A stretch of 64,000 nucleotides of DNA from Candidatus Methylobacter favarea (GCF_902806695.1 NZ_CADCXN010000047.1:62001-126000); one strand, 5' to 3'; positions 1,246-30,655 are shown, numbered from the stretch's first letter. The notes: a model not told the origin generated them from the sequence alone. A program made the numbers and translations.

Positions 1246-3389
1246 TGCAGCGTTTCCCTGGCCCGACGGCGGTAAGCATTCACCGCCGGCATTAGCATCA
1301 GCACAAACAAACCGGAAGCCAAACCCAACGGCCAAATCACCGGTTGGTTCCATTCTCGTCTTTTTTCTGCTCTGACAGCAGTATTAATGCGGGTATATTT
1401 AAGCCGATTATTGGCCATTAGATTGGGCTTAAGATTATTATACCAGCCATGATAGAGCCCGAAATCTTTCGGATGAAAGCCAAAAACCCAGGGCGCATCA
1501 TGCCGAACGATTTCCTGCAGTTGCTGGATAATCTGAAAACGCTGTGGGCTGTTGTCCATATTGCGCATTTGTTCGAATAGCCGGTCAAACTCAGGGTTCT
1601 GATAATTGCCGGCATTCTCTCCGCCGTGCCTGCTTTTTGAATTAGGGCCATACAACAGGAAAAAGAAATTCTCCGGATCAGGATAATCGGCATTCCAGCC
1701 CCAGACGAATAACTGGGCATTGCCGGTGCGCATTTTCTGTTGAAAGCGGTTGTAATCGGTCGCCCGAATAACCAGCTTGATACCCAGTTTCTCAAACTGT
1801 TTACGATACCAGTTCATGCTGGGGCGGTCGTCAATACTGACTGAAGTCGTATCAAAATGCAGAATTAGCGGCTCTTTCGTTTTGGGATCAATGCCATTGG
1901 CATAGCCTGCTTCCGCCATCAACTGCTGCGCTGTAGCGATTTTTTTACGCTGCGCCGTGCCATTCGCCAGGTCGTGCGTATAGGGATTAATGCCGGCTTT
2001 ATCTTCCGCGTAACCAAAAATACCGGGCGGTATCAAGCCTTGCGCGACAACGCCCCGGCCATTCCGGAAAATGGAGATATATTCTTCATAATCAACAGCA
2101 ATGGAAATGGCCTGACGTAACTTCCTGGCTTTTTCGCTGTCTCCGCCTACCGTTGCATCCAGCATATTAAAACCCATATAGAAAATGGAGGTTTCCACTG
2201 CCGTTTGCAGCCGGATGCCTTTTTCCTGCATGGAAGGCGTTAAAGCCGCTTCGCCGCTGCCGGTAAATTGTATGGCCTGGTCAAAACTGTCCGAAGCAAT
2301 GCCTGAAGCATCATAGTAGCCTTGCAAAAACTTGTTCCAGTAGGGAATGGTTTCTTTTTCCAGCATAAAAACAACTTTATCGATAAAGGGCAGTTTTTTT
2401 CCTGCATCCTTTAACAAGCCATTTTCCTTATCTTCCGGCTCGCCTTCGGAAGGATAGGTTTCCGAATGAAATAACGGGTTTCTGGTTAACATCATGCGCC
2501 GGTTGGGATTATTCTCGGCCAGAAAATAAGGGCCCGTACCGAGCGGAAACCAGTCCAGCGTGATGTTTTTGTCAGCTAAACCAGGCTGTTCATAAAATAC
2601 ATCCGCTTCCCACGGCATAGGCGCAAAAAAAGGCATGGCCAGCCAGAAAATAAATTGCGGATATTTGCCTTTAATCCGTATGCGGTATTGATAACGATTG
2701 ATGGACTGAACGCCTGCTATTGGCAGATCTTTAATATCAGGCTTTTGCTTGTCGCTGACTTGTTTGGAAAAATCATCAAAGCCGACAATATAATTTTTCA
2801 TGATTTCGGCTATGGGCGATTGAACTTTAGGATGCGCAAGTCGCTTGATCTGGTAAATATAATCTTCGGCAGTAAGTTCGCGCGAGCCGGTAGATTCCAG
2901 ATCCGTCAGTTTGTCAAGCTGATTGATTTGGGTACCGGTCAAGCGATGGTACAGATAGTTGCCCTGGCTATCTTTTGCCAGCGCCGGATGCGGCTGAAAG
3001 CGGATATCAGGCTGAATTTCAATTACATAGTCGGTAAAAGCAATTTCGCTGATCTTGGCTCCCTCCTCCAGTTTTTGCCCTTGCGCATTCAGATACTTAA
3101 TGTCAGGCATGCCGGTGGCTGTTAACGGCGCCAGTTGATAAGGGCGTTTCAGGTAATGATATTGAAAGGGCGGCTCATAAATTTGTGCAATAAAGGCATA
3201 TTCATTTTCACTGTAGGCGACCGCCGGATCTAAATGCTTGGGCCGTTCTGAAAATGATTGATATAGAATCGGCAGATTTTCATTTTCTTTGGGATAAGGG
3301 TTATTAAGCTCTGAATAATCGCAAGCATTCAAAAATACGGCAACTACGAGCAGGACTAGCAAGCGAGCATGGCAGAGGCACATCTTCAT
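1242..3389 (-). CDS. peptide-type ABC transporter substrate-binding lipoprotein with C-terminal membrane helix
   Basis: This is a large family-5 (SBP_bac_5) solute-binding protein that would deliver peptides or a similar solute to the two permeases downstream. From the ATG at 3389 it has about 715 residues. The N-terminus is a signal sequence ending in a lipobox (FLNAC, Cys about 23), and family blocks such as GTGPYFLAENNPNR and WGWNADYPDPENFF follow. In-frame ATGs also exist at 3455, 3422, 3407 and 3383, and none has a clear ribosome site. The C-terminus is odd: after the usual fold comes a hydrophobic stretch (VIWPLGLASGLFVLMLM) and a basic tail, so the protein may be anchored to the inner membrane at both ends. 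It is divergent from fabI. Confidence 0.85.
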   Translation of the reverse strand: MKMCLCHARLLVLLVVAVFLNACDYSELNNPYPKENENLPILYQSFSERPKHLDPAVAYSENEYAFIAQIYEPPFQYHYLKRPYQLAPLTATGMPDIKYLNAQGQKLEEGAKISEIAFTDYVIEIQPDIRFQPHPALAKDSQGNYLYHRLTGTQINQLDKLTDLESTGSRELTAEDYIYQIKRLAHPKVQSPIAEIMKNYIVGFDDFSKQVSDKQKPDIKDLPIAGVQSINRYQYRIRIKGKYPQFIFWLAMPFFAPMPWEADVFYEQPGLADKNITLDWFPLGTGPYFLAENNPNRRMMLTRNPLFHSETYPSEGEPEDKENGLLKDAGKKLPFIDKVVFMLEKETIPYWNKFLQGYYDASGIASDSFDQAIQFTGSGEAALTPSMQEKGIRLQTAVETSIFYMGFNMLDATVGGDSEKARKLRQAISIAVDYEEYISIFRNGRGVVAQGLIPPGIFGYAEDKAGINPYTHDLANGTAQRKKIATAQQLMAEAGYANGIDPKTKEPLILHFDTTSVSIDDRPSMNWYRKQFEKLGIKLVIRATDYNRFQQKMRTGNAQLFVWGWNADYPDPENFFFLLYGPNSKSRHGGENAGNYQNPEFDRLFEQMRNMDNSPQRFQIIQQLQEIVRHDAPWVFGFHPKDFGLYHGWYNNLKPNLMANNRLKYTRINTAVRAEKRREWNQPVIWPLGLASGLFVLMLMPAVNAYRRRARETLQ

Positions 3390-3469
3390 GGACAAAAGAC
3401 TGGACATCAATAAAAGGGTCATAGATACTTGAAATTCTATTGTAACAATAAACACACCGGGAGATGATA

Positions 3470-4249
3470 ATGGGTTTTATGCAGGGCAAACGGGTCTTGA
3501 TTGTGGGTTTAGCCAGTAATCGTTCTATCGCATGGGGAATTGCTCAGGCCATGCATCGCGAAGGCGCTGAATTGGCTTTTACCTTCCAAAATGAAAAATT
3601 GCAAAGCCGGGTCGAAGAAATGGCTGAACAGTGTGGCTCCAAAATAACCATTGAATGTGATGTCGGTATGGACGAGCACATAAGCACTGTTTTTGAAGCA
3701 CTGGGCAAACACTGGGATGGTTTGGATTGTATCGTTCATTCCGTGGCATTTGCGCCTCGCGACGCTCTGGATGGCGATTATGTCAACGCCACTACCAGAG
3801 AGAATTTCAGAATTGCTCACGATATCAGTTCCTACAGCTTCACGGCGCTGGCCAAAGCCGGCCGGGGCATGATGGCGGGGCGCAACGGCTCGCTGCTGAC
3901 ATTAACCTATTTGGGCGCTGAGCGGGTTATTCCTAATTACAATGTCATGGGAGTGGCCAAAGCAAGTCTGGAAGCTAATGTCCGTTATATGGCTGTGGCT
4001 TTGGGCGCTGAGGGCACTCGAGTCAATGCCATTTCGGCAGGCCCGATCAGGACGCTGGCGGCGTCCGGCATTAATAATTTTAAATCCATGCTCAGCAAGG
4101 CGGCCGATTCATCGCCGTTAAAGAAAAATGTCACTATTGAGGAAGTTGGCAACGCTGCTGCCTTTCTCTGTTCAGATCTTGCCTCGGGTATTACCGGAGA
4201 AATCACTTATGTGGACGCAGGCTATAACATCGCAGGCTTGAAATTTTAG
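3470..4249 (+). CDS. fabI: enoyl-[acyl-carrier-protein] reductase (NADH)
   Basis: FabI reduces trans-2-enoyl-ACP in the last step of each cytoplasmic fatty acid elongation cycle. The 259-residue short-chain dehydrogenase-like protein has the FabI nucleotide-binding start ([20 protein letters not shown]). It also has the catalytic pattern Tyr-x6-Lys in [13 protein letters not shown], and the substrate-loop region [15 protein letters not shown]. Sequence along its length is close to Escherichia coli FabI, the triclosan target. I chose the ATG at 3470 (MGFMQGKR) over those at 3464 and 3479 because a GGGAG motif lies at ideal spacing and homologues start the same way. The gene is convergent with ppiD and shares a terminator with it. 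Confidence 0.96.
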
Positions 4250-6916: not shown

Positions 6917-9349
6917 TTAATGGGCAGTAAGACCCTGCTTTATGAGTTTACCGGCATCAGCTTCATTTTTAGCCTGTTCGTCGCTTTCCTTTTTAGGAAC
7001 GGGAACCGGCATATATTGCAAAGCTACTTGCAGAACCTCATCTATCCAGTGCACCGCTCTGATGTCCAGATTTCGCTTTATATTCTCAGGTATCTCAACC
7101 AGATCTTTTTCATTTTCTGAAGGAATCAAAACTGTTGTGATTCCGCCTCTGTGGGCAGCCAGAAGCTTTTCCTTTAATCCGCCAATAGGCAATACTTCAC
7201 CGCGCAAGGTAATCTCACCGGTCATCGCGACGCTGGCCCGCACCGGTATTTTAGTCAGTGCCGAAATAATAGCCGTACACATACCTATGCCCGCACTAGG
7301 GCCGTCTTTCGGCGTTGCGCCTTCGGGTACATGTATATGAATATCATTTTTCTGAAACAGCTCATTGTCTATACCCAGGACTTCCGAACGACTTCTTACC
7401 ACTGTCATGGCGGCTTCAATTGATTCTTTCATAACCTCGCCAAGCTTGCCGGTAGTCGAATGTTTTCCTTTTCCCGGGATTACCGCTGTCTCGATGGTTA
7501 ATAATTCTCCGCCAACTTCTGTCCACGCTAAACCTGTAACCTGGCCGACTTGATCCTGTTCCTCGGCAAGACCATAATTAAAACGTTTAACTCCGAGATA
7601 TTTATCCAGATTCTCGGGACCAACCAGTATTTTGGTTTGCTCCCGTGTCAGCAATAGATTTTTAACGACCTTACGGCAGATTTTGGAAATTTCCCTCTCC
7701 AGGCTCCGCACGCCGGCTTCCCGGGAATAATAACGAATCATATCCCGGACCGCTGCTTCTGAAATTTCAATTTCCTGCTCTTCCAGACCGTTATTTTTAA
7801 CCTGTTTGGGAATCAAATAACGGAGAGCGATATTGATCTTTTCATCTTCCGTATAGCCGGCCAGACGTATGACTTCCATCCTGTCCAGCAAAGCCGGAGG
7901 AATATTCATGGTGTTCGCAGTAGCCACAAACATTACATCAGACAAATCAAAATCCACTTCCAGATAATGGTCGGAAAAAGTATGATTTTGTTCAGGATCC
8001 AGCACTTCTAATAAAGCCGACGCCGGATCGCCTCGAAAATCAGCCGCCATTTTGTCAATCTCATCCAGTAAAAACATCGGATTCCGGGTTTTCACTTTAG
8101 CCAGATTCTGCAGAATCTTGCCGGGCATCGAACCTATATAAGTTCGGCGATGCCCGCGAATCTCCGCTTCATCCCTTACGCCCCCCAATGACATTCGTAC
8201 ATATTTGCGATTGGTGGCTCTGGCAATGGATTCACCCAGCGAGGTTTTACCTACACCCGGAGGACCTACGAGGCACAAGATAGGGCCCTTCAGTTGCTTT
8301 ATCCTTTGTTGCACGGCAAGATACTCAAGGATGCGCTCCTTGACCTTTTCCAGGCCATAATGTTCGGCTTCCAGAACCTGCTCGGCAACTTTCAGATCAT
8401 GCCGCACTTTGGTTCTTTTCTTCCAGGGCACAGTAATCATCCAGTCAATATAATTACGCACCACTGTTGCTTCGGCCGACATGGGCGACATTAATTTAAG
8501 TTTATTAAGCTCCGCATCCGCCTTTGTTCTTGCTTCCTTGGACATCCCCGCATTTTCAATTTTCTTTTCCAGTTCTTCAATTTCGTTAGGTACGTCTTCC
8601 ATTTCGCCCAGCTCTTTTTGAATCGCTTTCATTTGCTCGTTCAGGTAATATTCCCTCTGATTTTTTTCCATTTGCTGCTTGACGCGTACGCGAATCCTCT
8701 TCTCCATTTCCAGAAGATCGACTTCCCCTTCCATTAAAGTCATCAAATCTTCCAGGCGCTTCTCGATATCTGCGGTTTCAAGTATGGCCTGCTTTTCATT
8801 AACTTTTAAAGTCATATGAGCCGCCATCGTATCGGCCAGTCGGCTGGGGTCATCAATGCCGGCCAGAGAATTCAGTACTTCGGGGGGAATCTTGTTATTC
8901 AGCTTGACGTATTGGTCAAACGAAGTGATCACGGTTCGTTGTAATACTTCCTGCTCCTGTTCAGGCAGTTCCATAACATCATTAATTTTCATTATGACAG
9001 CTGAAAAAAAGCCGTCTGTCTCTTTATAGCCAATGACCTGGCTACGCTGGCTGCCTTCAACCAGCACCTTGACAGTTCCATCAGGAAGCTTCAGTAACTG
9101 CAAAATATTGGCAAGCGTACCGACCTCATAAAGGTCAGTAAAATCTGGCTCATCAACTTCCGCCTCTTTTTGGGCCACCAGCAATATCTGTTTGTTATCC
9201 TTCATGGCGGCATCCAGGGCCTCAATAGACCGTTCTCTGCCGACAAATAAAGGAATTACCATATGCGGATAAACCACCACATCTCTAAGGGGTAAAACAG
9301 GAATTAAATTACCGGGGCGTTGTAACTCTTTCACTTTATGCGTTTCCAT
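6917..9349 (-). CDS. lon: ATP-dependent protease Lon
   Basis: Lon is a cytoplasmic AAA+ serine protease that degrades misfolded and regulatory proteins. The 810-residue protein has the N-terminal substrate domain ([20 protein letters not shown]) and Walker A GPPGVGKT at about 362-369. Walker B is FLLDEIDK at about 426-433. The protease domain has catalytic Ser at about 685 ([10 protein letters not shown]) and Lys at about 728 (GGLKEK). It starts at the ATG at 9349, preceded by AAGG. It lies downstream of clpX behind a terminator, so it is probably transcribed on its own, as is common for this heat-shock gene. Confidence 0.97.
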
Positions 9350-9458
9350 AACACGGAACCTTTAACAAATTGCGTTGAATTAAGATTATGGGGATGCTAA
9401 TTAAAATAGCAAGGGATAAAGAGCAGCTAAAATAGTAATATTGCACTCCAAAGCGCAA

Positions 9459-9490
9459 AAAAAAGGAGCTTGGAAAAAAGCTCCTTTTTT
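9459..9490. terminator. intrinsic terminator downstream of clpX
   Basis: Inverted repeat AAAAAAGGAGCT / AGCTCCTTTTTT with an 8-base loop, 10 bases beyond the clpX stop codon. The stem ends in a T-run on the minus strand, so it should terminate tig-clpP-clpX transcription before lon. Confidence 0.9.
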
Positions 9491-9499
9491 ATCTCCGCC

Positions 9500-10771
9500 T
9501 TATGATTCTGCCGAGGCTTTTTTCTTCTCGGCTTTATAAACCAGAAAGGGCTCGGATTCGCCTACAATAACACTTTCGTCTACTACGACTTTGCAAATAT
9601 TATCTGCTGACGGTAACTCATACATGGTATTCAGCAAGATATTTTCGACAATTGTCCTTAATCCCCGTGCGCCTGTTTTTCTTTCCATTGATTTGCGGGC
9701 GATTGCATGCAATGATTCTTCGCGAAATTCCAGTTCAGCGCCTTCCATTTCAAATAAATGCTGATATTGTTTGATCAACGCATTTTTAGGCACAGTCAAT
9801 ATCTGTACCAGGGCCTGTTCATCCAGCTCTTCCAAGGTTGCAATAACCGGAAGACGTCCCACAAATTCCGGAATTAATCCGTATTTGATTAAATCTTCAG
9901 ATTCAACTTCGGCAAACAGTTGCCCGACATTTTTTGCTTCATCCTTGGTTTTTACTTCCGCTGAGAAACCTATCCCGCCTTTTTCAGAACGGGCCTTAAT
10001 AACACGATCCAAACCGGCAAATGCGCCTCCGACTATAAACAGTATATTAGCCGTATTTACCTGTAAAAATTCCTGCTGGGGATGTTTGCGGCCGCCCTGG
10101 GGAGGAACCGAAGCGATGGTTCCTTCAATCAATTTTAATAGAGCCTGCTGAACGCCTTCCCCTGAAACATCACGGGTAATGGAGGGATTATCGGATTTTC
10201 TGGAAATTTTATCAATTTCATCAATATAAACAATACCCGTTTCAGCTTTCTCAACGTCATAATCGCATTTTTGCAGTATTTTCTGAATGATGTTTTCTAC
10301 GTCTTCACCTACATAACCCGCTTCTGTCAGCGTGGTTGCATCGGCAATAGTAAAAGGCACATCAAGCAACCGGGCTAATGTTTCAGCCAGCAATGTTTTT
10401 CCTGAACCGGTAGGTCCAATCAACAGGATGTTGCTTTTTGCTAGCTCAACCATATCTTTTCTGGACTTGCTGCGCAAACGTTTATAATGATTATAAACTG
10501 CTACCGCCAGAATTTTCTTCGCTCGTTCCTGTCCGATAACATATTCATCGAGTTCTTTTTTTATCTCTTTTGGTTTGGGTAATTCGTCCGCGCCGGAAGC
10601 AGAATCATCCTGCAATTCATCTTTAATAATGTCATTACAGAGTTCAACGCATTCATCACATACATAAACTGATGGCCCGGCAATAAGCTTTCTTACTTCA
10701 TGCTGACTTTTGCCACAAAAGGAACAATAGAGCAACTTATCGTCGTCTTTGCTGTTTTTGTCATTACTCAT
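9500..10771 (-). CDS. clpX: ATP-dependent Clp protease ATP-binding subunit ClpX
   Basis: ClpX is the AAA+ unfoldase that feeds tagged proteins into ClpP. The 423-residue protein starts [20 protein letters not shown] with the Cys4 zinc-binding N-domain (CSFC ... CDEC). It has Walker A GPTGSGKT, Walker [10 protein letters not shown] and the ClpP-contacting IGF-type loop ([10 protein letters not shown]). An AGGAG ribosome site precedes the ATG at 10771; the open frame upstream of that is not coding. It lies 88 bp from clpP in the order tig-clpP-clpX. Confidence 0.97.
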
Positions 10772-10859
10772 AAATTTGGACTCCTGCAAACATCCCGATG
10801 TGATGTATTTATTGTCGATAATATAAAGAATATATCGAAATCGACAAAGATACCAACGG

Positions 10860-11507
10860 TTATTTTTCAGAAGCCGTGATTCGACTCGATAATACTTTAT
10901 CAATCAAACCATAACTTACCGCCCCATTAGCACTTAAAAAGTTATCTCTATCCGTATCTATCTGCACCTTGTCTAACGGTTGACCGGTATGGTGAGCCAG
11001 GATTTTGTTCAGTTTTTCCCGGATTGACAGAATCTCCCGGGCATGAATATCTATATCAGAAGCTTGTCCCTGAAAACCGCCCAGCGGTTGATGGATCATC
11101 ATTCTTGAATGAGGCAGACAATAACGTTTATCTTTTGCCCCTCCTGTTAGAAGCAATGCGCCCATACTGGCTGCCTGGCCAATGCACAAAGTGCTCACAT
11201 CGGGTTTAACAAATTGCATGGTGTCATAAATTGACATACCGGCGGTTACTGATCCGCCGGGAGAGTTTATATAAAGATGAATATCCTTGTCAGGATTTTC
11301 CGATTCAAGAAAAAGCAGCTGGGCAACGACCAGATTAGCCATATAATCTTCCACCTGGCCAACCAGAAAAATAACCCGCTCCTTTAATAATCTGGAGTAA
11401 ATATCGAATGAACGCTCGCCACGCGCCGTCTGTTCTATAACGATAGGCACTAATCCGCCTGCAGCTTGCGGTGCAATTGCCTGATCTATTACCTGTTTCT
11501 TATACAT
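10860..11507 (-). CDS. clpP: ATP-dependent Clp protease proteolytic subunit ClpP
   Basis: ClpP is the tetradecameric serine protease chamber that works with ClpX. The 215-residue protein carries the catalytic triad: Ser in [11 protein letters not shown], His in [11 protein letters not shown] and the later Asp in the DRDNF region. It also has the oxyanion strand [16 protein letters not shown]. The start ATG overlaps the trigger-factor stop by one base (TAATG), so translation is coupled. Confidence 0.97.
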
Positions 11508-12817
11508 TAGGATTCCTTATTGTTCTGGTTAGCCATGACATCATTAAATTTTACTGTTTCATCTGACACTTTTGCCTGCGCAACCAGCGCTTCGACTGTT
11601 TGCTCCTCCAGCACCATTTGCTGCACATCTTTTAAGCGGCTTTCATCTGAAAAATACCACCTGACAACATCCTGAGGACTTTCATAGCTTTTCGCCAGGT
11701 CTTCTACGGTAGAACGTACTCTGCCGCTATCCAGCTTGATGTTATTTTTTTGAATGACTTCCCCGAGGAGCAATCCCAGAGCCACGCGGCGTTTCGCTTG
11801 TTCTTCAAATACCTCTCTCGGCAAGCGCAAGTCTTCCAGCTTCACTTTCTGTCTTTTAGCGGTTTCCCTATAAGGCTTCATCAGGTTTTCAATTTCCTGG
11901 TCCAGCAAAGTATTTGGCACCGCAACCGGAATTTTTTTATACAAGGCATCCAGTACTGCATTTTTCAGATTGCTGCGCAATGCCTGTTCGAGTTCTCTTT
12001 CCATGTTAGCTCTAACATCTTTACGGAAAGCATCCAGGGAGCCTTCATCAATACCATAGGCTTTAATAAACGCTTCATCGATTTCCGGTAGAGCCGGTTC
12101 TTCAACCTGAATAACTTCAACTTCAAACTCAGCAGCCTTGCCGGCCAGCTTTTCATTCCCGTATTGTTCCGGAAAAAACACTTCAAAAGTTTTAGTAGCG
12201 CCCGCCTTGAGGCCAAGCAGATTTTCTTCAAAACCCGGAATCATTTGTTTTGCGCCACAAACTACCTGATAGTTCTCAACTTTTCCGTCTGTGAAGTTCT
12301 CGCCCTCAGAAATGCCTGAAAAACTTATTGTCAGGCGGTCATTGTCCCGGGCTTCCCGCTCCACGGCATGCCATTCTTTCTTTTGCGCCTGTAACTTGGC
12401 TATCATGTTATCCACATCCGCTTCTTCAACAGTTGCAAGCGGGCGAATGACTTCAAGTTGATCAATGCCTTCGAGGGAAATTTCAGGATAAACTTCAAAC
12501 TCGGCCGTATATTTGAAACCTTCAGCCTCATCCGACGGGTGAATGTGCGGGTGGCCGACAGGCTTTAAATCCTGATCTTGCAAGGCTTCGAAATAAGTAG
12601 ATTGGATCAGGTCGCCGGCAACCTCACCGCGCACCCGTTCTGCAAACATTTTTTTAACTACATGCTGAGGCACTTTGCCGGGACGAAAGCCATCGATTTT
12701 TGCTTCGCGCGCCAATTTTTTTAAGCGCGACGCCATTTTCTCCTGTACAACTTCTTCAGGTATGCTGACAGTCATTTTTCTGCTTAATTCGGATGTCTTT
12801 TCGACAGAAATTTGCAT
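11507..12817 (-). CDS. tig: trigger factor (ribosome-bound chaperone)
   Basis: Trigger factor binds the ribosome exit tunnel and shields nascent chains. The 436-residue protein has the ribosome-binding signature GFRPGKVP at about residues 43-50. It then has an FKBP-type prolyl isomerase domain (about 150-245, with [13 protein letters not shown] and [12 protein letters not shown]) and a long helical chaperone domain. It heads the tig-clpP-clpX operon. Confidence 0.96.
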
Positions 12818-20495: not shown

Positions 20496-21125
20496 ACGCT
20501 ATCCTCTTGTTAGTCTTTTAATTATCATTATTTACGCCTGCTCGACCCTGCACTTCCAGTCCGCAAGCTGTCCCAGCCACGAGCAAGGCCATATAAACAG
20601 CTCTACCCAACTGATTTTGTAGTGATATTCTAACCCGAATTGACAGCACTGTCTCAATAAACACTGCCCTGATTTTATCGAATTTCTGATTGCATCCGAT
20701 CAGGCAGGTAACTGCTGCAAACGCACCCTAAATTAAACTATGTTATTTAACACGCCGGGAATAGGTCATTTGACGCACTTTTTATCTTATCATTATGTTC
20801 CCGCCCCTCAGCAGAGCATGATAAGCGCGCAGTCACTGGACAAACAGCATTAAAGACTATCAGGTATAATAGTTGCTTATCATTGACTTAGGGGTCAGTC
20901 ATATTTTCCATCTAAATACCTGGATGGGTAAATTCTTCTCATTTTTAACTAATCAGCCTTTGTAGCCGCCCGTTTCAGGGTTTTTCTAGCGAGCCTGCCG
21001 ATATAGTAAAATACCGGGGTAACTTACAATAAATCAATGTTTCTTTTTCTGCTTCAGATAAAGACGCCTGAAATTTTTGCAGCACACCTTCACCGAACTT
21101 AAAAATATAATTATCAGGATTATTT
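20496..21125. other. intergenic region between fhcB and the divergent channel gene
   Basis: About 630 bp that must hold the start signals for fhcBADC (leftward) and for the channel gene (rightward). A TATAAT box occurs in AGGTATAATAGTTGC near 20866 on the plus strand, but its best -35 candidate is 22 bp away, so I do not call it. No open frame of coding character and no clear structured RNA was seen. Confidence 0.5.
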
Positions 21126-22207
21126 ATGAATCAATCGAAAAAAATACCTCTGGCGGTAAGCCTAATCTTGTTAGTCGCCACATACAGCGGCGCAGTTCTG
21201 GCCGATCATGGCTCGTTGGGCTTCGGCATTGGCACCGCATCGCCCATTATCACGCAAACAGGGGTAACACTTCCCACAGGCATGTGGGCAGGCGGCCAGG
21301 CTTTTGCCGAATCCGCGCGCGTCAACTTGTAACACTTCCCACAGGCATGTGGGCAGGCGGTTTGATCGCCCAGTTTATCAGCCTTGACAGCGCCTCGGAT
21401 GCCACTTTGCTCGACATCAAGAATAATGCAGTGGATGAAGCCCATGGCGATGTCCACAGCGTAAATACTTTATTAATACCATCGGTCTTTGCGGCCTATG
21501 GCATTACCGACGATCTGACTCTGGGCCTGAGAATTCCTTATGTCTTGCGTTCCGGCGTACGTTCGCCGAATGAAGAGGGCGATGCCGTTAATAAGCAGGG
21601 TGATCCCAGCGGTTTTGGGGATGTCTCTGTATTTGGCCAGTATCGGTTTTTTCATAGTGCTGATAATTTAAATCATGCCTCTCTGGTGATCGCGCTTAAA
21701 ACACCGACAGGTGAAACAGGTGTGCAGAATAATCAAGGCAACAGTTTCGAAACCCACCATCAACCCGGCGGCGCCTGGTCTCCTTCTGCAGGTCTTTCTT
21801 TTACTCGTGCGATGGGGTCGTTCTCGTTTGATACCAGCGTTCTTTATACCGTAGCGACCCAAGGCGCACAAAAAACCGACCTCGGCGATATTTTCGGCTA
21901 TAACTTTGCGCTTTCCTATGCTTTCGGCGCTCCAGTCCGTAACGCCTTTTTTTCTTCCAGCAACAATGCGCCATGGACAGCTGTCCTGGAACTTAACGGC
22001 GAGTGGCAGGATCAGCAAAAAACAGACGGCTTGAAAGATCCCAATTCCGGTGGCCATAGCGTTTTTATTTCACCTGGCGTCAGGTACTCGGGAGGCAAAA
22101 GCTGGAACACCGCGCTATCAATAGGAGCGCCGATAGTTACGGATCATAACGGCTTTCAGACCGATCCTGATTACCGGATTACTTATCGCTTCGTAGCCGT
22201 ATTCTAA
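21126..22207 (+). pseudogene. outer-membrane channel protein (PF13557-type), interrupted by a 65-bp insertion
   Basis: The reading frame from ATG 21126 has a signal peptide (LAVSLILLVATYSGAVLA) and the start of a mature protein (GFGIGTASPIITQTGV). It then stops at 21332. The remainder lies in another frame from about 21330 to 22207. It resembles the phenol_MetA_deg/putative transporter barrel family (DLTLGLRIPYVLRSG, GFGDVSVFGQYRF) and ends in a terminal Phe, the usual outer-membrane signal. A 32-bp direct repeat with a 65-bp offset lies exactly at the break, and removing 65 bp restores one frame of about 338 codons. As sequenced the gene is broken. It heads a cassette with the Asp-box lipoprotein and thioredoxin-like genes. 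Confidence 0.82.
21264..21360. repeat. 32-bp direct repeat, 65 bp apart, inside the channel gene
   Basis: The 32 bases at 21264-21295 recur identically at 21329-21360; both copies encode VTLPTGMWAGG. The 33 bases between are unique. Since 65 is not a multiple of three, the duplication shifts the frame. Recombination or slippage between the copies would delete exactly 65 bp and restore the gene. Confidence 0.95.
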
Positions 22208-22242
22208 TATTTTTGCATAGTCTGAATTGATTTAATGATTAA

Positions 22243-23553
22243 ATGATAAATTTGCCTGATTTTCCCATTATAAAAAGAGCTGCTCGTATCACTAATAAAA
22301 CCAGGGGAAAGGGATTTTCAGGAGGTTTCCTTAAAGGCGGCTTCAGTTACCCCTTTACACCCTGGGCGGCTAAGGCCGCCTCTACAGTGTTGCTGATCAG
22401 CGCGGTAGCGTTAAGTGCTTGCAGTCATGGCAACCAGGACTATCTAAAATCCGGAGCGGCCGATTACAGTCATTATCCTGAAGGCGGCGGTCTGTTCGTC
22501 TCTGCCGCGTTCGGACCGGACGGCCGATTGTGGCGGATTGTGCCGGAAAAAAAACATGTCTATGTGGATTATTCGACCGACCTGGGTAAAACCTTCAGTG
22601 CGCCTGTCGTCATCAACAAGGAATCTCAGCCCATCAAGGTGAGCGGCGAAAACCGGCCCGGCATCGCCGTGGATGGTTCCGGCCGAATCACTGTCATTTA
22701 TGCGGCTGAAGGGGCTCAGCCAGTCGCTTTATTTTTCAGTGTATCCGCCGATAACGGCCGCAGCTTTTCGACGCCGTCGCCCTTAAGCGACAAAGCGTCC
22801 GAAGCCAACTCCTTTCAGGGCCGCCTGGCGTTGAGTCTGTCCGGCCGGGCCTATGCCTTCTGGCATGACGAACGAGATCGCAGCGACTGGCGACAGCTTG
22901 GCAACGCGATTTATTACACGACTATCGACGCCCGGAGCGGCTCTGGCCCGGTTGCCCAAAAGCTGTCCGATTCCGTCTGCGATTGCTGCCGCATTGCCGC
23001 TGCCTTTGATAGTAATGAGCAGCCTGTGTTATTGGCGCGCTTCATTTATCCCGGCGGCATCCGTGATCATGGTCTGATCACAATACCAACTGGCGGCAAG
23101 GAAGCGCTTTCATGGCGGGTTACCTTTGATCAATGGCGTATCGAGGCATGTCCTGAGCATGGTCCTGCCATTTCGATCAGTGATGGGCGATACCATATCG
23201 CCTGGTTTACCCAGGGCAGCGTCCGTCAAGGTTTGTTCTATGCCTATTCATCCGACCAGGGACAGCATTTTTCAAATCCCTTGTCTTTTGGCAATTCGGA
23301 AAAACTGCCCAGCCATCCTGATATCATGGCTCAAGGTGAACACGTTGTCTTAACCTGGACTGAGTTTGACGGCGTCAAAACACAGCTTATGGTTATGCAA
23401 TCCCACGATGGCGGTCAGACCTGGCTGCCGCCCAGGGCAATAGCAGAAGCCACAGATGAAACCGACTTTCCATTTTTGCTGAGCAATAATCAAGGTATTT
23501 TCGTTTCGTGGAACAGCAAGACCAAAGGTTATCGCTTGCTTCCCCTGAACTGA
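22243..23553 (+). CDS. sialidase-fold (Asp-box) lipoprotein with a Cys cluster
   Basis: This predicted lipoprotein has up to 436 residues. A hydrophobic segment ends in lipobox LSAC (Cys60). A six-bladed propeller-like body follows, marked by Asp-box repeats (STDLGKTFS, SADNGRSFS, SSDQGQHFS, SHDGGQTWL). The middle holds a Cys cluster VCDCCRIA (Cys246, 248, 249), which could bind metal or form disulfides. The N-terminus before the signal segment is unusually long, so a later start (e.g. TTG/GTG near residue 49) is possible. It sits between a channel gene and a thioredoxin-like gene. True sialidase activity is not implied. Confidence 0.75.
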   Translation: MINLPDFPIIKRAARITNKTRGKGFSGGFLKGGFSYPFTPWAAKAASTVLLISAVALSACSHGNQDYLKSGAADYSHYPEGGGLFVSAAFGPDGRLWRIVPEKKHVYVDYSTDLGKTFSAPVVINKESQPIKVSGENRPGIAVDGSGRITVIYAAEGAQPVALFFSVSADNGRSFSTPSPLSDKASEANSFQGRLALSLSGRAYAFWHDERDRSDWRQLGNAIYYTTIDARSGSGPVAQKLSDSVCDCCRIAAAFDSNEQPVLLARFIYPGGIRDHGLITIPTGGKEALSWRVTFDQWRIEACPEHGPAISISDGRYHIAWFTQGSVRQGLFYAYSSDQGQHFSNPLSFGNSEKLPSHPDIMAQGEHVVLTWTEFDGVKTQLMVMQSHDGGQTWLPPRAIAEATDETDFPFLLSNNQGIFVSWNSKTKGYRLLPLN

Positions 23554-23582
23554 ATCGTCCACTACTTTATAAAGGTCTAATC

Positions 23583-24077
23583 ATGTCACTTAAAAAAATA
23601 TTTTCAGGCTTGGTTTTTATTTTTCTAGCCGCGACCAACATTTCTGCACTTGCCGGGAATTCGGACTTGAAAGCGTTTACCTCCGGCAGTTATCAGCAAA
23701 TGCTGGCAAACAACGCCAACCGGCCCTTCATGCTGGTAATCTGGTCAGTAGATTGTTCTTCCTGTCTGAAAGACATGGCGCTACTGAGCAGTATTCATAA
23801 GAGCAGGCCGGAACTTAAAATGATCATGCTGGCCACTGATGACTTATCGGCAACCGGTGAAATTCAGCAGCTACTGGAAAAAAATCAATTATCCGGGATT
23901 GAAAACTGGATTTACGCTGAAGATAATACCCAGAAACTTCGCTTTGAAATTGATCCGAAATGGTATGGCGAATTGCCCAGAACCTATTTTCTGGATGCCA
24001 CGCATTCACGCGTCGGCGTAAGCGGAGTAATCTCAAAAAAAGATTATGAAACCATGTTCAAAAAAATTTTAAATTAG
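23583..24077 (+). CDS. exported thioredoxin-like protein
   Basis: This 164-residue protein has a signal peptide (IFSGLVFIFLAATNISALA) and a thioredoxin-like fold with redox motif CSSC (Cys58, Cys61) in LVIWSVDCSSCLKDM. A cis-Pro follows in LPRTYFLDA. It resembles TlpA/ResA-type thiol-disulfide proteins. I chose the ATG at 23583 because AAAGG lies before it and the longer frame overlaps the upstream gene. Its location directly after a lipoprotein rich in Cys suggests that it may reduce those cysteines or deliver a metal. Confidence 0.8.
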   Translation: MSLKKIFSGLVFIFLAATNISALAGNSDLKAFTSGSYQQMLANNANRPFMLVIWSVDCSSCLKDMALLSSIHKSRPELKMIMLATDDLSATGEIQQLLEKNQLSGIENWIYAEDNTQKLRFEIDPKWYGELPRTYFLDATHSRVGVSGVISKKDYETMFKKILN

Positions 24078-25517: not shown

Positions 25518-25638
25518 AAAACTTGACCTTGGAGCGGGCTATGTAATAGTGAAGATGTTACATTATGCAACTAAATCAGCAATAGAAAATCTATTGCTGA
25601 TTATAATAAAAAATGCAAGGGATTGAGGCGAGGGTGGA

Positions 25639-27399
25639 GTGAATAAATATTATATAGGTCTGTCGGTTACCTATCATGATTCGGCTTTGGCTATCATTGA
25701 TGCTCAGGGAGACGTGCTGTTTGCCGAGGCGACTGAGCGTTATCTGCAAAACAAGCGCGCATTAAACTGCGAGCCTGACCAGTTATTTCTGGTTCCGGAT
25801 TTACTAAAGCAGTATTGCCCCGCCCCCGACGAATTTGTTATTGCTATTAACTGGCGCAAAAAACGGCCTGTTTATGAGTCCGCAGTTTCCCGCCTAGGCT
25901 TTCTTTCAGCGCCCGGCCTATTAAAAACCGGCATTAAAAAACTCCGTTCCCCGCTGGAAAATTACCAGTTGCACCATATGATGGCCTGTCAGCGCAACAG
26001 TATCCTTGCCGCCGGCATTAACCTGGTGCGTATCATTCGGGAATATTACCCCGGCTGCAAAATCGCCTTTGCCGACTATGATCATCACCTGACTCATGCC
26101 GCAACAGCCTGTTACAGCAGCCCGTTCGATCAGGCCGCCTGTGCGGTTATTGATTCCTATGGTGAAAAGGGCGCTATGGCCTTTTACCGCTACAACCATC
26201 AAAAACTGGAACGCCTGCATGAAACCAAAGGCATAGGCACAGGCAGTCTCGGTTTGTATTACATGAAGATCACCGAGCTGTGCGGCTTTGACTGGCTGAA
26301 AGGCGAAGAATGGAAAGTCATGGGCCTCGCGCCTTATGGCAAATTTGACCAGGAGCTTTATGAACTGCTGCAATCCGTAATCTGCGTTAACGGCTTCGAT
26401 TGCAAACATCCAGCCAAGCCCTTGTTCCAGAGCCTGACCCGGCTGGAGCGTTTCAGACGGCCAAAAGACCGGCCGATAGAACAGGCGGCTGACTGTGCTT
26501 ATACCGGCCAGGTTTTTTTTGCCGAGCTGGTAACCAAATTATTAAATCATCTTTATGAAGTGACGCAGTGTGAAAATCTCGCACTGGCCGGAGGCTGCGC
26601 CCTGAACTCTTCTTTCAACGGGCAAATTACCGGCCGCACCGCGTTCAGACAGGTATATATTCCTTCTGCGCCCGCCGATGACGGCTGTGCGCTGGGGGCC
26701 GCGTGGCTGTCCTATTATGCGGAGCACTCCAATCATCGTAAACAGCCAAAACTGCTGACGTCTTATACGGGTTCAAGTATTGCCAGTGACGCTATGGAAC
26801 GCTTTTTAAAGTTCAACCGCTCGCTGCATGTTCAACACTTACCCGGCAGCGTCTGTGATATTACCGCCGGACTGCTGGCAACAGGAAAACTGGTCGGATG
26901 GATACAAGGCCGGGCCGAGTTCGGTCCCCGAGCGCTGGGGAATCGCTCTATTCTTGCCGACCCGAGATCGGCCGCCACCCGGGATCACATCAATCAAAAA
27001 ATTAAATTTAGAGAAAGTTTTCGCCCGTTCGCGCCCTCGGTTTTGCATGAGTATGCTGCGGATTATTTTGAAAATTACCAGGAGTCGCCCTATATGGATA
27101 AAACCCTGTCAATCAAGAAAGCCATGCGCGAGCGTATTGTCGCAGTTTGTCATATCGATGGAACCGGACGCTTGCAAACTGTCAAAGAAGATTGGAATCC
27201 GCGCTTTTATCATCTGCTGAACAGTTTTTACCAGTTGACTCAAATTCCCGTTTTACTGAATACCAGTTTTAATGTCATGGGCAAGCCGTTAGTCCATTCG
27301 CTGGAAGATGCTGTTGCCGTGTTTTTGACCACCGGACTGGATGTGTTAGTGATAAATGATTATCTAATTACCAAATCTCCTGATGAATCAATTGAATGA
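25639..27399 (+). CDS. carbamoyltransferase (NodU/TobZ/CmcH family)
   Basis: This 586-residue enzyme of the O-carbamoyltransferase family transfers a carbamoyl group from carbamoyl phosphate to a hydroxyl via carbamoyl-AMP. The N-terminal Kae1-like domain shows the metal motif DHHLTHAA and IDSYGEKG. The C-terminal YrdC-like domain shows GRAEFGPRALGNRSILADPR and PVLLNTSFNVMGKPLV. It starts at GTG 25639 with purine-rich sequence upstream. It overlaps the next gene by 17 bases. Family members decorate antibiotics, Nod factors and other secondary metabolites, so the locus is probably biosynthetic. The acceptor is unknown. Confidence 0.92.
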   Translation: MNKYYIGLSVTYHDSALAIIDAQGDVLFAEATERYLQNKRALNCEPDQLFLVPDLLKQYCPAPDEFVIAINWRKKRPVYESAVSRLGFLSAPGLLKTGIKKLRSPLENYQLHHMMACQRNSILAAGINLVRIIREYYPGCKIAFADYDHHLTHAATACYSSPFDQAACAVIDSYGEKGAMAFYRYNHQKLERLHETKGIGTGSLGLYYMKITELCGFDWLKGEEWKVMGLAPYGKFDQELYELLQSVICVNGFDCKHPAKPLFQSLTRLERFRRPKDRPIEQAADCAYTGQVFFAELVTKLLNHLYEVTQCENLALAGGCALNSSFNGQITGRTAFRQVYIPSAPADDGCALGAAWLSYYAEHSNHRKQPKLLTSYTGSSIASDAMERFLKFNRSLHVQHLPGSVCDITAGLLATGKLVGWIQGRAEFGPRALGNRSILADPRSAATRDHINQKIKFRESFRPFAPSVLHEYAADYFENYQESPYMDKTLSIKKAMRERIVAVCHIDGTGRLQTVKEDWNPRFYHLLNSFYQLTQIPVLLNTSFNVMGKPLVHSLEDAVAVFLTTGLDVLVINDYLITKSPDESIE

Positions 27400-29596
27400 A
27401 TTGAATCCTTTTAATCCATCCTTGCAAGCGGCTTTTTCCAGCCGGGCCTGTAAGTCGGCGTTAAATTATCAACAGGACAGCCGGCAGCTGTTTTATACCC
27501 TGATCCATATCAGTGAACACTGTGCCGCTCTTCCGCTAGCTTATCACTACCTCCGCCAGCATTTAACAGAAGTAAACAAGCAATACCCGATAAATTTTTC
27601 CGAACCATATCACCCCGATGCTATCGGCGTTACCCTGAGTATGCCGTTACCTGATCCAGGATTGGTTGAATTAAATCTGAACGCCTGTTTGTTGCAATCC
27701 TCGCCGGTTATTTTGACTGAAGCCTGCTGGCTGCAGGCTATTTCCCAGGCGGCCAGCAGTCAGTCTCAAATGGCCGTTAAGCTGATGGCTGTCTATTCAA
27801 GGTTAACGAATCGAGAATCGTATAAGGTTTTATATCAATCACTATTACTAACGGCAGGTATAGAGATGCCGGCTTTGCATACCTGGGCATTTGCCCGCCA
27901 GGAACAGATTAGCGACTGTAGCTTTGAGTTTGCAAGCATCCAGCTTGCTCTGACGCATTTCCCGCGCGTTTTTTTTCCCGAAATACTGGGCTTTACATTG
28001 GCTTATTGTCAATCCCGCACCCTGCTAGAACACTGTTTTCCTGCGCAAAAGCTGCAAACGCAATCCAGCCTGATGCATTTTTTGACAGGCCGGCAGAAGC
28101 TGTTGAGCGCTCAGATTCCCTTCATCATTGAAGCGGTCAGGGATTATTTACAGATTTTTGCTGAACGCACGGAATCCTTATGGCCGCGCATGCAGACCGG
28201 TTTTTGGCTTTACAAGCAACAGACGGAGCGTTGTTATCGGCATTTAAAACAGCAGCTGGAAAATCCTTTATCAACCCGGCAGGCGCTGGCAAAATTGCTG
28301 CAATACAAAGCCTCTTCTGCTTTCGGACATCACGCGAAAATTCAACTGGCCGGCAAATCTCTGGATGACTGGTTTTCACAATCTCCATTTGACAGCGAAA
28401 ACTTTCTTACCGTCTTAAAACAATCTCCGTATATCAACACACAAAATCCTGCCGACAGTCCATTACTTAAGCTGTTTGATTTCAACGGCCCCATGTTCGG
28501 GGTTTTGACTGAATCTGAAAAAGAACTGCTGAAAATCTGGCTAGGGTCTGAAAATTCAGAAATACCCAGTCAGGATAAATCGGCAGCGGTTATGATGGAA
28601 GTTAAAAACCCGCTGCCGTTTGATGAAAAAAAATGCTCGCCGATTATTAACTGCTCCCATATCGATTACGCCAATATTAACTACTCCAGGCTGAATACCA
28701 GAGAGCTTTATTATTATCTGGTAAACGCCGACTTATACCCGGAAGTATTGGCGACGGCGAGACGGAGAGTGCAGCGTGTTTTACAAGTGGCAAAACTCCT
28801 GAATCGCTTGCCATTCAAGCCATACAGCCATCAGGTTTTTGAAGAGTATATTGACGCGATTTATCAGCGCGAAATCAAGGCTTACCAACCGCTTGAAGCA
28901 TCACCGAAATTATCAAGGAAAGCCTATTTATGGGGAATTGAACAGTTTGCGCCTACAATTTTAACCGACGGCTGCTGGCTGCAGCATGTTAATCAGCTAG
29001 GCTATTCCCACCCTGCCATAGCCGCTATTTTATTCAGGATTTATGAGGACGAAACAGGCAATGGCCGGCTCGAACAAAATCATCCTTATATTTATCAGCG
29101 CTTACTGAATAGCCTGAACATAAGCGTGCCGCCGATTCATAGCCGGCAGTTTATTGAATATCCGGGTTTCATAGCCGGCGCTTTCGACATCCCGGTCTAT
29201 TTACTAGCCATTTCAAAATTCCCGGCTGCTTTTCTGCCCGAGCTATTAGGTTTGAATATGGCCATCGAGTTAAGCGGCCTGGGCAGGGTCTATATGCAGT
29301 TAGTTGATGAATTAAAGTTTTGGGGCATCGATCCTGCTATTGTCAGCATACATATTTCCATAGATAACATTGCTTCGGGACATACCGCCCTGGCAAAGAA
29401 AGCTGTCCAGTTGTATCTGGATGATATTTCTGCTTCTCATGGAGAGTCGGAAATGCAGCGTCACTGGCAGCGCATCCATACCGGCTATTGTTCACTGCAA
29501 ACAGTCGGCAGAAACTTTAAATGGACATTGATATACCGATATTTATTAAAGCAAATGACTGGCTGGCCCAAGTCATCATTAAAAATGACAAGTTGA
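27383..29596 (+). CDS. duplicated haem-oxygenase-like diiron (HDO) protein, N-half degenerate
   Basis: This 737-residue protein contains two related halves. Blocks repeat: LTEACWL (111-117) with LTDGCWL (527-533), and FFPEILGFTLA with FLPELLGLNMA. The second half keeps the iron ligands expected of iron-containing redox enzymes: acidic YEDETGNG (554-561), His567, Glu in the 620-629 helix, and the block H657-x3-D661-x5-H667. In the first half the matching positions carry other residues (e.g. Gln for Asp661 and His667). HDO enzymes use O2 for decarboxylation, N-oxygenation or C-C cleavage. Its start lies inside the carbamoyltransferase gene. The substrate is unknown. Confidence 0.82.
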   Translation: MNQLNELNPFNPSLQAAFSSRACKSALNYQQDSRQLFYTLIHISEHCAALPLAYHYLRQHLTEVNKQYPINFSEPYHPDAIGVTLSMPLPDPGLVELNLNACLLQSSPVILTEACWLQAISQAASSQSQMAVKLMAVYSRLTNRESYKVLYQSLLLTAGIEMPALHTWAFARQEQISDCSFEFASIQLALTHFPRVFFPEILGFTLAYCQSRTLLEHCFPAQKLQTQSSLMHFLTGRQKLLSAQIPFIIEAVRDYLQIFAERTESLWPRMQTGFWLYKQQTERCYRHLKQQLENPLSTRQALAKLLQYKASSAFGHHAKIQLAGKSLDDWFSQSPFDSENFLTVLKQSPYINTQNPADSPLLKLFDFNGPMFGVLTESEKELLKIWLGSENSEIPSQDKSAAVMMEVKNPLPFDEKKCSPIINCSHIDYANINYSRLNTRELYYYLVNADLYPEVLATARRRVQRVLQVAKLLNRLPFKPYSHQVFEEYIDAIYQREIKAYQPLEASPKLSRKAYLWGIEQFAPTILTDGCWLQHVNQLGYSHPAIAAILFRIYEDETGNGRLEQNHPYIYQRLLNSLNISVPPIHSRQFIEYPGFIAGAFDIPVYLLAISKFPAAFLPELLGLNMAIELSGLGRVYMQLVDELKFWGIDPAIVSIHISIDNIASGHTALAKKAVQLYLDDISASHGESEMQRHWQRIHTGYCSLQTVGRNFKWTLIYRYLLKQMTGWPKSSLKMTS

Positions 29597-29599
29597 CAG

Positions 29600-30655
29600 A
29601 TGTTGATACGATTGAGCCATTTGCTCCCCTTTATTTTACCGGTCAGCGTTTTCTTTTTTCTGCTAAGCGGGCCTCACAGTATTGAGGGAGCGCTGGCCTG
29701 GACAACACCGTTCTGGACAGTCCTGCTGGCTGACTGGCTCAGCCCTGAAGTAACAACGCAGCAACAACAAAGTGTTAAAAATGGATTTTATGATGGCATT
29801 TTATACGGCCTCGCTGTCTTGCAGATGGTAAATGTAGGTTTAATGCTGGATTATATCAGCCGATTAGAGTGGACTTCATCAGGGGCGGCAATAGTCGGCT
29901 TGGCCAATCTGGTTGCGGTCAGATTTCTGGTCGGCACTAGCTCGGGAACGTCAGGAATCGTCGTCGCCCATGAGCTGATCCATCGTCCCCAATGGCCTAT
30001 GCAGCAACTGGGCCGATTATTGTTATGCAGCGTCTGTTATGAACATTTTGTCATCACCCATAAGCGCGGACATCACCTGAATATTGGCATGCCGCAGGAT
30101 ATTGCCATGCCGCATCTGGGCGAAAGTTTTCATGACTACTGGAAGCGGATTTATACCGGCAATTTACGCTACGCCTGGCGCTCCGAGCAGGATAGACTGG
30201 GACTTCCCCAAAATCCGTGGGGCAGTTTAAAAAGCCTTCATAATCGGGTATTGCATGGGCTGCTGGCTGAATTGATACTGGTTGTTTCAATAACCGTATT
30301 TTTTGGCTGGATTGCCGCCTTCATGTTTTTATACCAGGCCTTTGCGGCCGTTCGCATACTGGAGGCCGTCAATTATTTTCAACATTGGGGGCTTGAAGAT
30401 GGGCGCTACGGCCATAGCTATGGCTGGGTCAATAACTCCTGGCTGACCAGCTATGCTTTAATCGGGCTTTCCAACCATATCGGTCATCATCAGAATGAGA
30501 AAAAACATTTTTATGAAATCGCCTATTCCGACCAAGGGCCGAAAATGCCCTACGGCTATTTCATCATGAATCTTTGGGTAAAACTGAACAATGACTCATA
30601 TCAAAAAATGGCAATGCGCGAACTGCAACACTATCGGTGCTCTCAGCGGTCCTGA
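29600..30655 (+). CDS. AlkB-like membrane diiron hydroxylase
   Basis: This 351-residue integral-membrane protein has the His-rich motifs of the alkane hydroxylase/fatty-acid desaturase superfamily. They are HELIH (124-128), THKRGHH (153-159), NYFQHWG (258-264) and HIGHHQNEKKH (293-303). They match the AlkB-type set (HELxHK, EHxxGHH, NYxEHYG, HxxHH), with the Glu of the second motif replaced by Thr. It starts 3 bases after the HDO stop, so the three genes form one operon. Members hydroxylate alkyl chains or other lipophilic substrates. Here it may place the hydroxyl that the carbamoyltransferase modifies, which is inference. Confidence 0.87.
   Translation: MLIRLSHLLPFILPVSVFFFLLSGPHSIEGALAWTTPFWTVLLADWLSPEVTTQQQQSVKNGFYDGILYGLAVLQMVNVGLMLDYISRLEWTSSGAAIVGLANLVAVRFLVGTSSGTSGIVVAHELIHRPQWPMQQLGRLLLCSVCYEHFVITHKRGHHLNIGMPQDIAMPHLGESFHDYWKRIYTGNLRYAWRSEQDRLGLPQNPWGSLKSLHNRVLHGLLAELILVVSITVFFGWIAAFMFLYQAFAAVRILEAVNYFQHWGLEDGRYGHSYGWVNNSWLTSYALIGLSNHIGHHQNEKKHFYEIAYSDQGPKMPYGYFIMNLWVKLNNDSYQKMAMRELQHYRCSQRS

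What the first reader, a model, noticed from the sequence alone, without database searches (positions are those of the whole stretch)
25639..30655. Undescribed-looking operon: carbamoyltransferase, duplicated HDO and AlkB-like hydroxylase
Seen: three plus-strand genes, 17-base overlap then a 3-base gap, encode an O-carbamoyltransferase, a 737-residue haem-oxygenase-like diiron protein and an AlkB-type membrane hydroxylase. A GPH-type symporter is divergent. Known: these families decorate or oxidise secondary metabolites or lipids, using carbamoyl phosphate and O2. Inference: a small oxidative pathway makes a carbamoylated, probably lipid-like product. The substrate is unknown and I recall no described system with this trio.
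Basis: partly seen in the sequence, partly recalled or inferred. Interest (0 to 1): 0.8.

Follow-up and report, generated by a model that had tools for sequence, protein, structure and literature searches.

The report
Methanotroph carbamoyltransferase, diiron N-oxygenase, hydroxylase operon
Many methane-eating bacteria carry three genes, two for iron-dependent oxygenases and one for an enzyme that attaches a carbamoyl group, which are gained and lost together and probably make an undescribed modified small molecule; the core pair resembles part of the machinery that makes a natural herbicide in Pseudomonas.

Summary
Three plus-strand genes encode a NodU/TobZ-type carbamoyltransferase (25639-27399), a 737-aa haem-oxygenase-like diiron protein (HDO, 27383-29596; 17-bp overlap) and an AlkB-type hydroxylase (29600-30655; 3-bp gap).

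Of 151 genomes of the order (Methylococcales), 70 have all three subfamilies, 76 have none, and 5 fragmented drafts have two. The genes keep company even where AlkB lies on another contig. The divergent GPH symporter is not part of the unit.

The HDO is duplicated, but only the C-terminal copy keeps the metal ligands. Fold and motif put it nearest N-oxygenases (RohS, HrmI, SznF).

The HDO-carbamoyltransferase pair is not unprecedented: it is also the core of the gvg cluster for the herbicidal amino acid 4-formylaminooxyvinylglycine (GvgC/GvgF) and of gvg-like clusters. The methanotroph version lacks GvgA, the GvgB peptide and exporters nearby, and adds AlkB; I found no description of it.

Best reading: a dedicated pathway that N-oxygenates and carbamoylates a substrate, which AlkB hydroxylates at the membrane. 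Substrate and product are unknown. A hopanoid-carbamate product is weakened: trio-negative Methylotuvimicrobium alcaliphilum still makes a little.

The parts
25518..25638 (.). 121-bp intergenic region between the divergent symporter gene and the operon; presumed to hold the operon's promoter
   Evidence: Position only; no promoter scan was run.
25639..27399 (+). NodU/TobZ-type carbamoyltransferase, 586 aa, GTG start
   Evidence: Pfam PF02543 and PF16861; NovN, GdmN and TobZ structures; HHxxHA and other motifs invariant in 15 homologues.
27383..29596 (+). two-domain haem-oxygenase-like diiron protein (HDO), 737 aa
   Evidence: Pfam PF14518; AlphaFold model, mean pLDDT 84.8; HDO structures at Z up to 22.
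27437..28276 (+). N-terminal HDO-fold copy (about residues 19-298) that lacks the metal ligands
   Evidence: Aligned to HrmI at Z 21 (residues 19-294); E...H and HxxxD...H ligands absent in the family alignment.
28670..29572 (+). C-terminal catalytic HDO domain (about residues 430-730); predicted ligands E557, H567, E629, H657, D661, H667, plus invariant D529
   Evidence: Residues invariant in 16 diverse homologues; motif shared with SznF and RohS; fold match to N-oxygenases.
29600..30655 (+). AlkB-type integral-membrane hydroxylase, 351 aa
   Evidence: Pfam PF00487; alkane 1-monooxygenase structures 8f6t and 8sbb; nine His and Glu125 of the AlkB site invariant in 13 homologues.

Best explanation
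The three genes are one co-inherited pathway of gammaproteobacterial methanotrophs. SHOWN by comparison: the three subfamilies occur together or not at all, whether or not AlkB is adjacent; the core is an HDO-carbamoyltransferase pair that also occurs without AlkB in a related clade and, more distantly, as GvgC/GvgF in FVG-type clusters. INFERRED: the C-terminal HDO domain is an N-oxygenase that uses O2 to hydroxylate a nitrogen of the substrate, and the ligand-less N-terminal copy is structural or binds substrate. The carbamoyltransferase moves a carbamoyl group from carbamoyl phosphate (by way of carbamoyl-AMP in characterised relatives) onto a hydroxyl or hydroxylamine. The AlkB-type enzyme hydroxylates an aliphatic part of the substrate at the membrane. 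With no NRPS, PKS, carrier peptide, exporter or esterase shared by the loci, the substrate is probably a ready-made cellular amine or amino-lipid and the product is cell- or membrane-associated. The order of steps and the substrate are unknown.
For: Co-occurrence in 151 genomes: 70 all three, 76 none, 5 drafts with two, including genomes with AlkB on another contig (G044, G106, G146, G147). Conserved order CTase-HDO-AlkB in family f1, AlkB mostly divergent from CTase-HDO in the other families. Catalytic residues conserved in all three. Structural neighbours of the HDO are N-oxygenases (Z 17-22 against 11-14 for other HDOs), and the motif region matches SznF and RohS. HDO plus carbamoyltransferase without AlkB in G178 and G323, and in gvg-like loci. 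No fourth shared gene.
Against: No substrate, product or activity is known. The N-oxygenase reading rests on fold and motif; sequence similarity is weak (E 0.002). 'Membrane product' rests on AlkB alone. The HDO-carbamoyltransferase pairs of methanotrophs and of gvg clusters are only about 30-35% identical, and the carbamoyltransferase is no closer to GvgF-type than to some other carbamoyltransferases.
Confidence: 0.5

Rival explanations
1. A true gvg-like system: the trio makes a diffusible FVG-like amino acid or other antimetabolite, released to act on neighbours.
For: GvgC and GvgF are both needed for FVG (PMC8067088), and the same enzyme pair is found here and in gvg-like loci. HDOs mostly act on amino acids (PMC13185094).
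Against: No GvgA, GvgB, GvgH, GvgI or LysE exporter near the trio; presence of a membrane AlkB enzyme; family-wide inheritance in f1.
Confidence: 0.2
2. The trio modifies amino-bacteriohopanepolyols (for example carbamate head groups or the extra side-chain hydroxyls of aminopentol).
For: Methylcarbamate hopanoids are known from Methylobacter-type cultures (PMC11844350, PMC5100885). M. alcaliphilum, whose 20Z genome lacks the trio, has no aminopentol and under 3% methylcarbamate-triol (PMC5100885); Methylococcus and Methylocaldum, genera with trio-positive genomes here, are reported as aminopentol makers (PMC5100885).
Against: The trio-negative species still makes methylcarbamate-triol. A carbamoyltransferase gives CONH2, not the reported CO-OCH3; ethyl forms exist (PMC11844350). 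The same core pair occurs outside methanotrophs.
Confidence: 0.12
3. The HDO is a UndA-like or BesC-like carbon oxidase, and with AlkB it processes fatty acids or hydrocarbons; the carbamoyltransferase caps the resulting alcohol.
For: AlkB homology; UndA, an HDO, acts on fatty acids (PMC13108848); UndA is in the structural list (Z 13).
Against: Motif and fold are nearer N-oxygenases.
Confidence: 0.12
4. The genes are neighbours without a shared pathway.
For: No biochemical proof of a shared pathway; the AlkB gene changes orientation between families.
Against: 70/76/5 co-occurrence pattern, including unlinked cases and genera in which some species have all three and others none (g7, g20, g34).
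Confidence: 0.04

Closest known systems
gvg cluster for 4-formylaminooxyvinylglycine (FVG), Pseudomonas fluorescens WH6, and gvg-like clusters (PMC8067088, PMC8064604)
   Same: An HDO (GvgC) and a NodU-family carbamoyltransferase (GvgF) encoded close together; HDO of about 670-740 aa with two halves in the gvg-like loci read here.
   Different: The methanotroph unit has no esterase GvgA, peptide GvgB, aminotransferase, formyltransferase or LysE exporter beside it; it has an AlkB enzyme; identity to gvg-like relatives is only about 29% (HDO) and 35% (carbamoyltransferase).
HDO N-oxygenases RohS, HrmI, SznF, FlcD
   Same: Fold (Z 17-22); E-x9-H motif shared with SznF and RohS, and invariant Asp529 aligned with a Glu of SznF.
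   Different: Here a ligand-less copy of the fold is fused in front; no cupin domain as in SznF; partners differ; activity unknown.
TobZ / GdmN / NovN O-carbamoyltransferases
   Same: Both Pfam domains, most of the length aligned, conserved motifs.
   Different: A separate, long-branched clade; not inside an antibiotic cluster; substrate unknown.
AlkB alkane 1-monooxygenase
   Same: Nine His and a Glu of the metal site invariant; fold family.
   Different: Distinct subfamily that follows the HDO and carbamoyltransferase across genomes rather than alkane-degradation genes.
MboA/MboB of mangotoxin biosynthesis (PMC13185094)
   Same: An HDO in a small amino-acid-derived pathway; 3-His/3-carboxylate diiron site.
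   Different: MboA is a desaturase/acetylenase with a different E-H ligand spacing and a redox partner; no carbamoyltransferase is mentioned in that paper.

Membership tests
HDO superfamily (diiron haem-oxygenase-like) | Seven-helix haem-oxygenase-like fold | tested here: met
   Model and VIA-align Z up to 22 for the C-terminal half and 21 for the N-terminal half.
HDO superfamily (diiron haem-oxygenase-like) | 3 His / 3 carboxylate metal ligands | tested here: met
   E557, H567, E629, H657, D661, H667 invariant in the C-terminal half. Not met in the N-terminal half. Metal content not measured.
HDO N-oxygenases | Oxidises a nitrogen atom of the substrate | not testable with these tools
   Only fold and motif similarity.
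gvg / gvg-like cluster | GvgC-type HDO together with GvgF-type carbamoyltransferase | tested here: met
   Pair present and co-inherited; homologous to the A. vitis gvg-like pair at 29% and 35%. The WH6 proteins themselves were not held for comparison.
gvg / gvg-like cluster | GvgA esterase and GvgB Lys-rich peptide (core genes) | tested here: not met
   No SGNH gene in the window locus, no shared extra gene across trio loci, no GvgB-like peptide near any trio; pattern hits in the own genome equal the control.
gvg / gvg-like cluster | GvgH aminotransferase and GvgI formyltransferase (for FVG itself) | tested here: not met
   None beside the trio in the window. Not searched genome-wide.
NodU/TobZ carbamoyltransferase | Carbam_trans_N and Carbam_trans_C domains with conserved motifs | tested here: met
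NodU/TobZ carbamoyltransferase | Carbamoyl transfer to a hydroxyl group | not testable with these tools
   No assay possible; acceptor unknown.
AlkB membrane hydroxylase | Nine-His diiron site in a membrane protein | tested here: met
   H124, H128, H154, H158, H159, H262, H293, H296, H297 and E125 invariant; AlkB structures as nearest PDB sequences.
AlkB membrane hydroxylase | Rubredoxin electron partner | not tested
   No rubredoxin gene is seen beside the trio; the rest of the genome was not searched.
Enzymes of methylcarbamate- or penta-hydroxylated amino-hopanoids | Trio present in makers, absent in non-makers | tested here: inconclusive
   M. alcaliphilum 20Z lacks the trio (G036); the species has under 3% MC-triol and no aminopentol (PMC5100885); too few named genomes.

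The most novel reading that the evidence does not exclude
A new, lineage-wide oxidative pathway of gammaproteobacterial methanotrophs in which a tandem HDO N-oxygenase, a carbamoyltransferase and an AlkB enzyme convert a membrane amine or amino-lipid into a hydroxylated, N-oxygenated carbamate: a compound class not yet described, built on the same HDO-carbamoyltransferase chemistry that helps make FVG.
Probability: 0.25. Interest if true: 0.8.

Novelty: new variant of a known kind. Interest (0 to 1): 0.58.

Why it matters
It defines a conserved three-enzyme pathway in about half of the sampled genomes of a well-studied order of methane oxidisers, with no known product. It also links that pathway to the unsolved biosynthesis of FVG, in which the roles of the HDO and the carbamoyltransferase are unassigned. 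Co-inheritance narrows the open question to which nitrogen the HDO oxidises and what is carbamoylated, which a set of deletion strains and one metabolomics run could answer.

Tried and rejected
GPH symporter, outer-membrane protein, BNR lipoprotein and thioredoxin-like genes as cluster members: rejected, they accompany the trio only in the same genus (the symporter also in G004). A fourth shared gene: none; a radical-SAM/DUF4070 gene precedes the trio in 7 loci only. A GvgB-like peptide at the trio: not found. Trio as a mark of methanotrophy: rejected, pmoA-type genes in 120 of 151 genomes against 74 with the HDO. PDB hits to designed PPR proteins for the HDO: rejected as a repeat artefact of residues 631-678, absent when that part is left out. 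hmmsearch of the full HDO profile against the PDB gave nothing. Other HDO kinds than N-oxygenases are in the fold list at lower Z. Rfam and promoter scans were not run. A careful HDO tree did not finish; the quick one was used. Literature searches for the trio found nothing. Methylcarbamate hopanoids as the product: weakened, see rivals. The single genome-contig scan gave one relative only, so most genomes here are unnamed; some were named through their plasmids.

Full report
WHAT IS THERE. Pfam gives both carbamoyltransferase domains to the first, Haem_oxygenas_2 to the second and FA_desaturase to the third. Solved relatives are novobiocin carbamoyltransferase, GdmN and TobZ for the first and alkane 1-monooxygenases for the third. 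A GPH-family symporter diverges upstream. The genome is a Methylobacter-like methanotroph: the one named close relative is Methylobacter sp. STD1_208. Identified members of family f1 are Methylotuvimicrobium alcaliphilum 20Z (G036), Methylobacter sp. YRD-M1 (G052) and Methyloprofundus sp. (G085); f4 holds Methylococcus sp. EFPC2 (G111) and Methylocaldum szegediense (G120). NCBI places Methylotuvimicrobium in the order Methylococcales.

ACTIVE SITES. In 16 diverse HDOs the C-terminal half has invariant D529, E557, H567, E629, H657, D661 and H667; the pattern holds in 41 homologues. The corresponding positions of the N-terminal half lack the E...H pair and the HxxxD...H motif. The AlphaFold model (mean pLDDT 84.8) shows two HDO-fold halves: residues 436-735 align to RohS at Z 22 and residues 19-294 to HrmI at Z 21. 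So the duplication is real, but one diiron site is predicted. N-oxygenases (RohS, HrmI, SznF, FlcD) lead the structural list at Z 17-22, above BesC, UndA, AetD and PolF at Z 11-14. With residues 500-604 alone, the matched HDOs in the PDB are SznF (E 0.002) and RohS (E 0.1). The alignment puts E557-x9-H567 on their E...H motif and invariant D529 on a Glu of SznF; an extra glutamate ligand, first recognised in SznF, marks the 3-His/4-carboxylate subset in a recent review (PMC13108848). Reading the HDO as an N-oxygenase is therefore an inference of moderate strength. The carbamoyltransferase keeps HHxxHA and the other motifs, and the AlkB-type enzyme keeps nine His and a Glu.

CO-INHERITANCE. I searched the same 151 genomes of the order with each protein: the HDO, the carbamoyltransferase subfamily and the AlkB subfamily. 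Taking only high-scoring subfamily members, 70 genomes have all three, 76 have none, and 5 (G019, G086, G118, G124, G147) have two; all five are drafts of about 280 or more contigs. In G044, G106, G146 and G147 AlkB lies on a different contig from the HDO, and in G100 about 5 kb from the carbamoyltransferase, yet it is still present. Some genera (g7, g20, g34) hold both trio-positive and trio-negative species. Shared descent inflates any p-value, but the pattern is hard to explain without a shared function. Gene order is CTase-HDO-AlkB in family f1, while in the other families AlkB mostly diverges from CTase-HDO. The trio is not a mark of methanotrophy: 120 of the 151 have a pmoA-type gene.

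WIDER RELATIVES. In samples of 369 genomes of the class and 398 of the phylum, HDO matches above 300 bits outside the order were found in 7 genomes. Six have a carbamoyltransferase within about 5 kb, and the seventh has the same-clade enzyme on another contig. Two of the seven (G178, G323) carry the trio's own carbamoyltransferase clade but no AlkB relative. So HDO plus carbamoyltransferase is the core, and AlkB is an addition in Methylococcales. Plasmid records show the same pair in Agrobacterium vitis and Acinetobacter with a LysE exporter and an SGNH esterase. This is the published layout of gvg-like clusters. In Pseudomonas fluorescens WH6, gvgC (haem-oxygenase 2) and gvgF (NodU-family carbamoyltransferase) are both needed for 4-formylaminooxyvinylglycine, with gvgA (esterase) and gvgB (Lys-rich peptide) (PMC8067088); gvgA, B, C and F are the core of gvg-like clusters (PMC8064604). 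The text of that survey names no methanotroph.

IS IT A GVG CLUSTER? Not on the features tested. There is no esterase, aminotransferase, formyltransferase or exporter beside the trio in the window, and no such gene is shared across trio loci. All eight gvg-like HDO loci read here encode a short, mostly Lys-rich peptide ending in IYP[MLF][FRH]; no such peptide lies near any trio, and pattern hits in the window's own genome equal the reversed-pattern control and have no Lys-rich context. The trio's carbamoyltransferase is about 35% identical to the A. vitis gvg-like one and about 33% to a Methylosinus one that has no HDO beside it, so a single origin of the pair is plausible but unproven. It works like the GvgC-GvgF pair; it is not filed as a gvg cluster.

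MOST LIKELY MECHANISM. Shown: three enzymes of recognisable class, kept or lost together, with intact active sites. Inferred: the HDO hydroxylates a nitrogen, the carbamoyltransferase adds a carbamoyl group, and AlkB hydroxylates an aliphatic part at the membrane. Since no assembly-line gene, carrier peptide or exporter is shared by the loci, the substrate is probably an existing cell amine or amino-lipid. One tempting candidate is the amino-hopanoids. M. alcaliphilum 20Z lacks the trio, and cultures of that species contain no aminopentol and under 3% methylcarbamate-triol, whereas Methylomarinum and Methylomarinovum contain much (PMC5100885). But the trio-negative species still makes some, the published group is a methyl ester rather than a carbamoyl amide, and ethyl forms exist (PMC11844350). 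I give this 12%.

VERDICT. Novelty is a new variant of a known kind, because the HDO-carbamoyltransferase core has a genetically characterised relative in FVG biosynthesis, although the papers read assign no reaction to those two proteins.

Noticed in passing
L107:7799, L108:8125, L109:11305(-), L110:8274, L111:4670(-), L123:15695, L124:15474, L162:3520: All eight gvg-like HDO loci read encode a short, mostly Lys-rich peptide with a C-terminus IYP[MLF][FRH], probably GvgB; loci with a related carbamoyltransferase but no HDO (L161, L163-L165) lack it. It looks like a carrier or substrate peptide whose last residue the HDO might oxidise.
   Followed up: partly
L042 (G009:C157), 7275-9599 +: A second, diverged two-domain HDO (35% identical) without a carbamoyltransferase or AlkB beside it, in a genome that also has the full trio.
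   Followed up: no
L120 (G091:C88), 2011-3735 -: A second carbamoyltransferase of the trio clade (46% identical) without an HDO on the held contig, in family f2 genomes (G091, G098, G104), each match read with one in-frame or terminal stop.
   Followed up: no
G067:C207:2971-3345: A short AlkB fragment of the trio type with a stop, in a genome without HDO or carbamoyltransferase: possibly a remnant of a lost trio.
   Followed up: no
L125 (Streptomyces sp. NBC_00158 plasmid) 9641-11908; L126 (Sinorhizobium meliloti pSmeSM11b) 9428-11731: Two-domain HDOs about 26% identical to the window's, followed by an acyl-CoA dehydrogenase in NRPS-type clusters that also hold a class I tRNA-ligase-like gene; no carbamoyltransferase nearby.
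   Followed up: no
window 21077-24077: An outer-membrane transporter-like protein, a BNR-repeat lipoprotein with a Cys-rich DSVCDCC motif and a thioredoxin-like protein lie in a row upstream; conserved in the same genus but not linked to the trio elsewhere.
   Followed up: no
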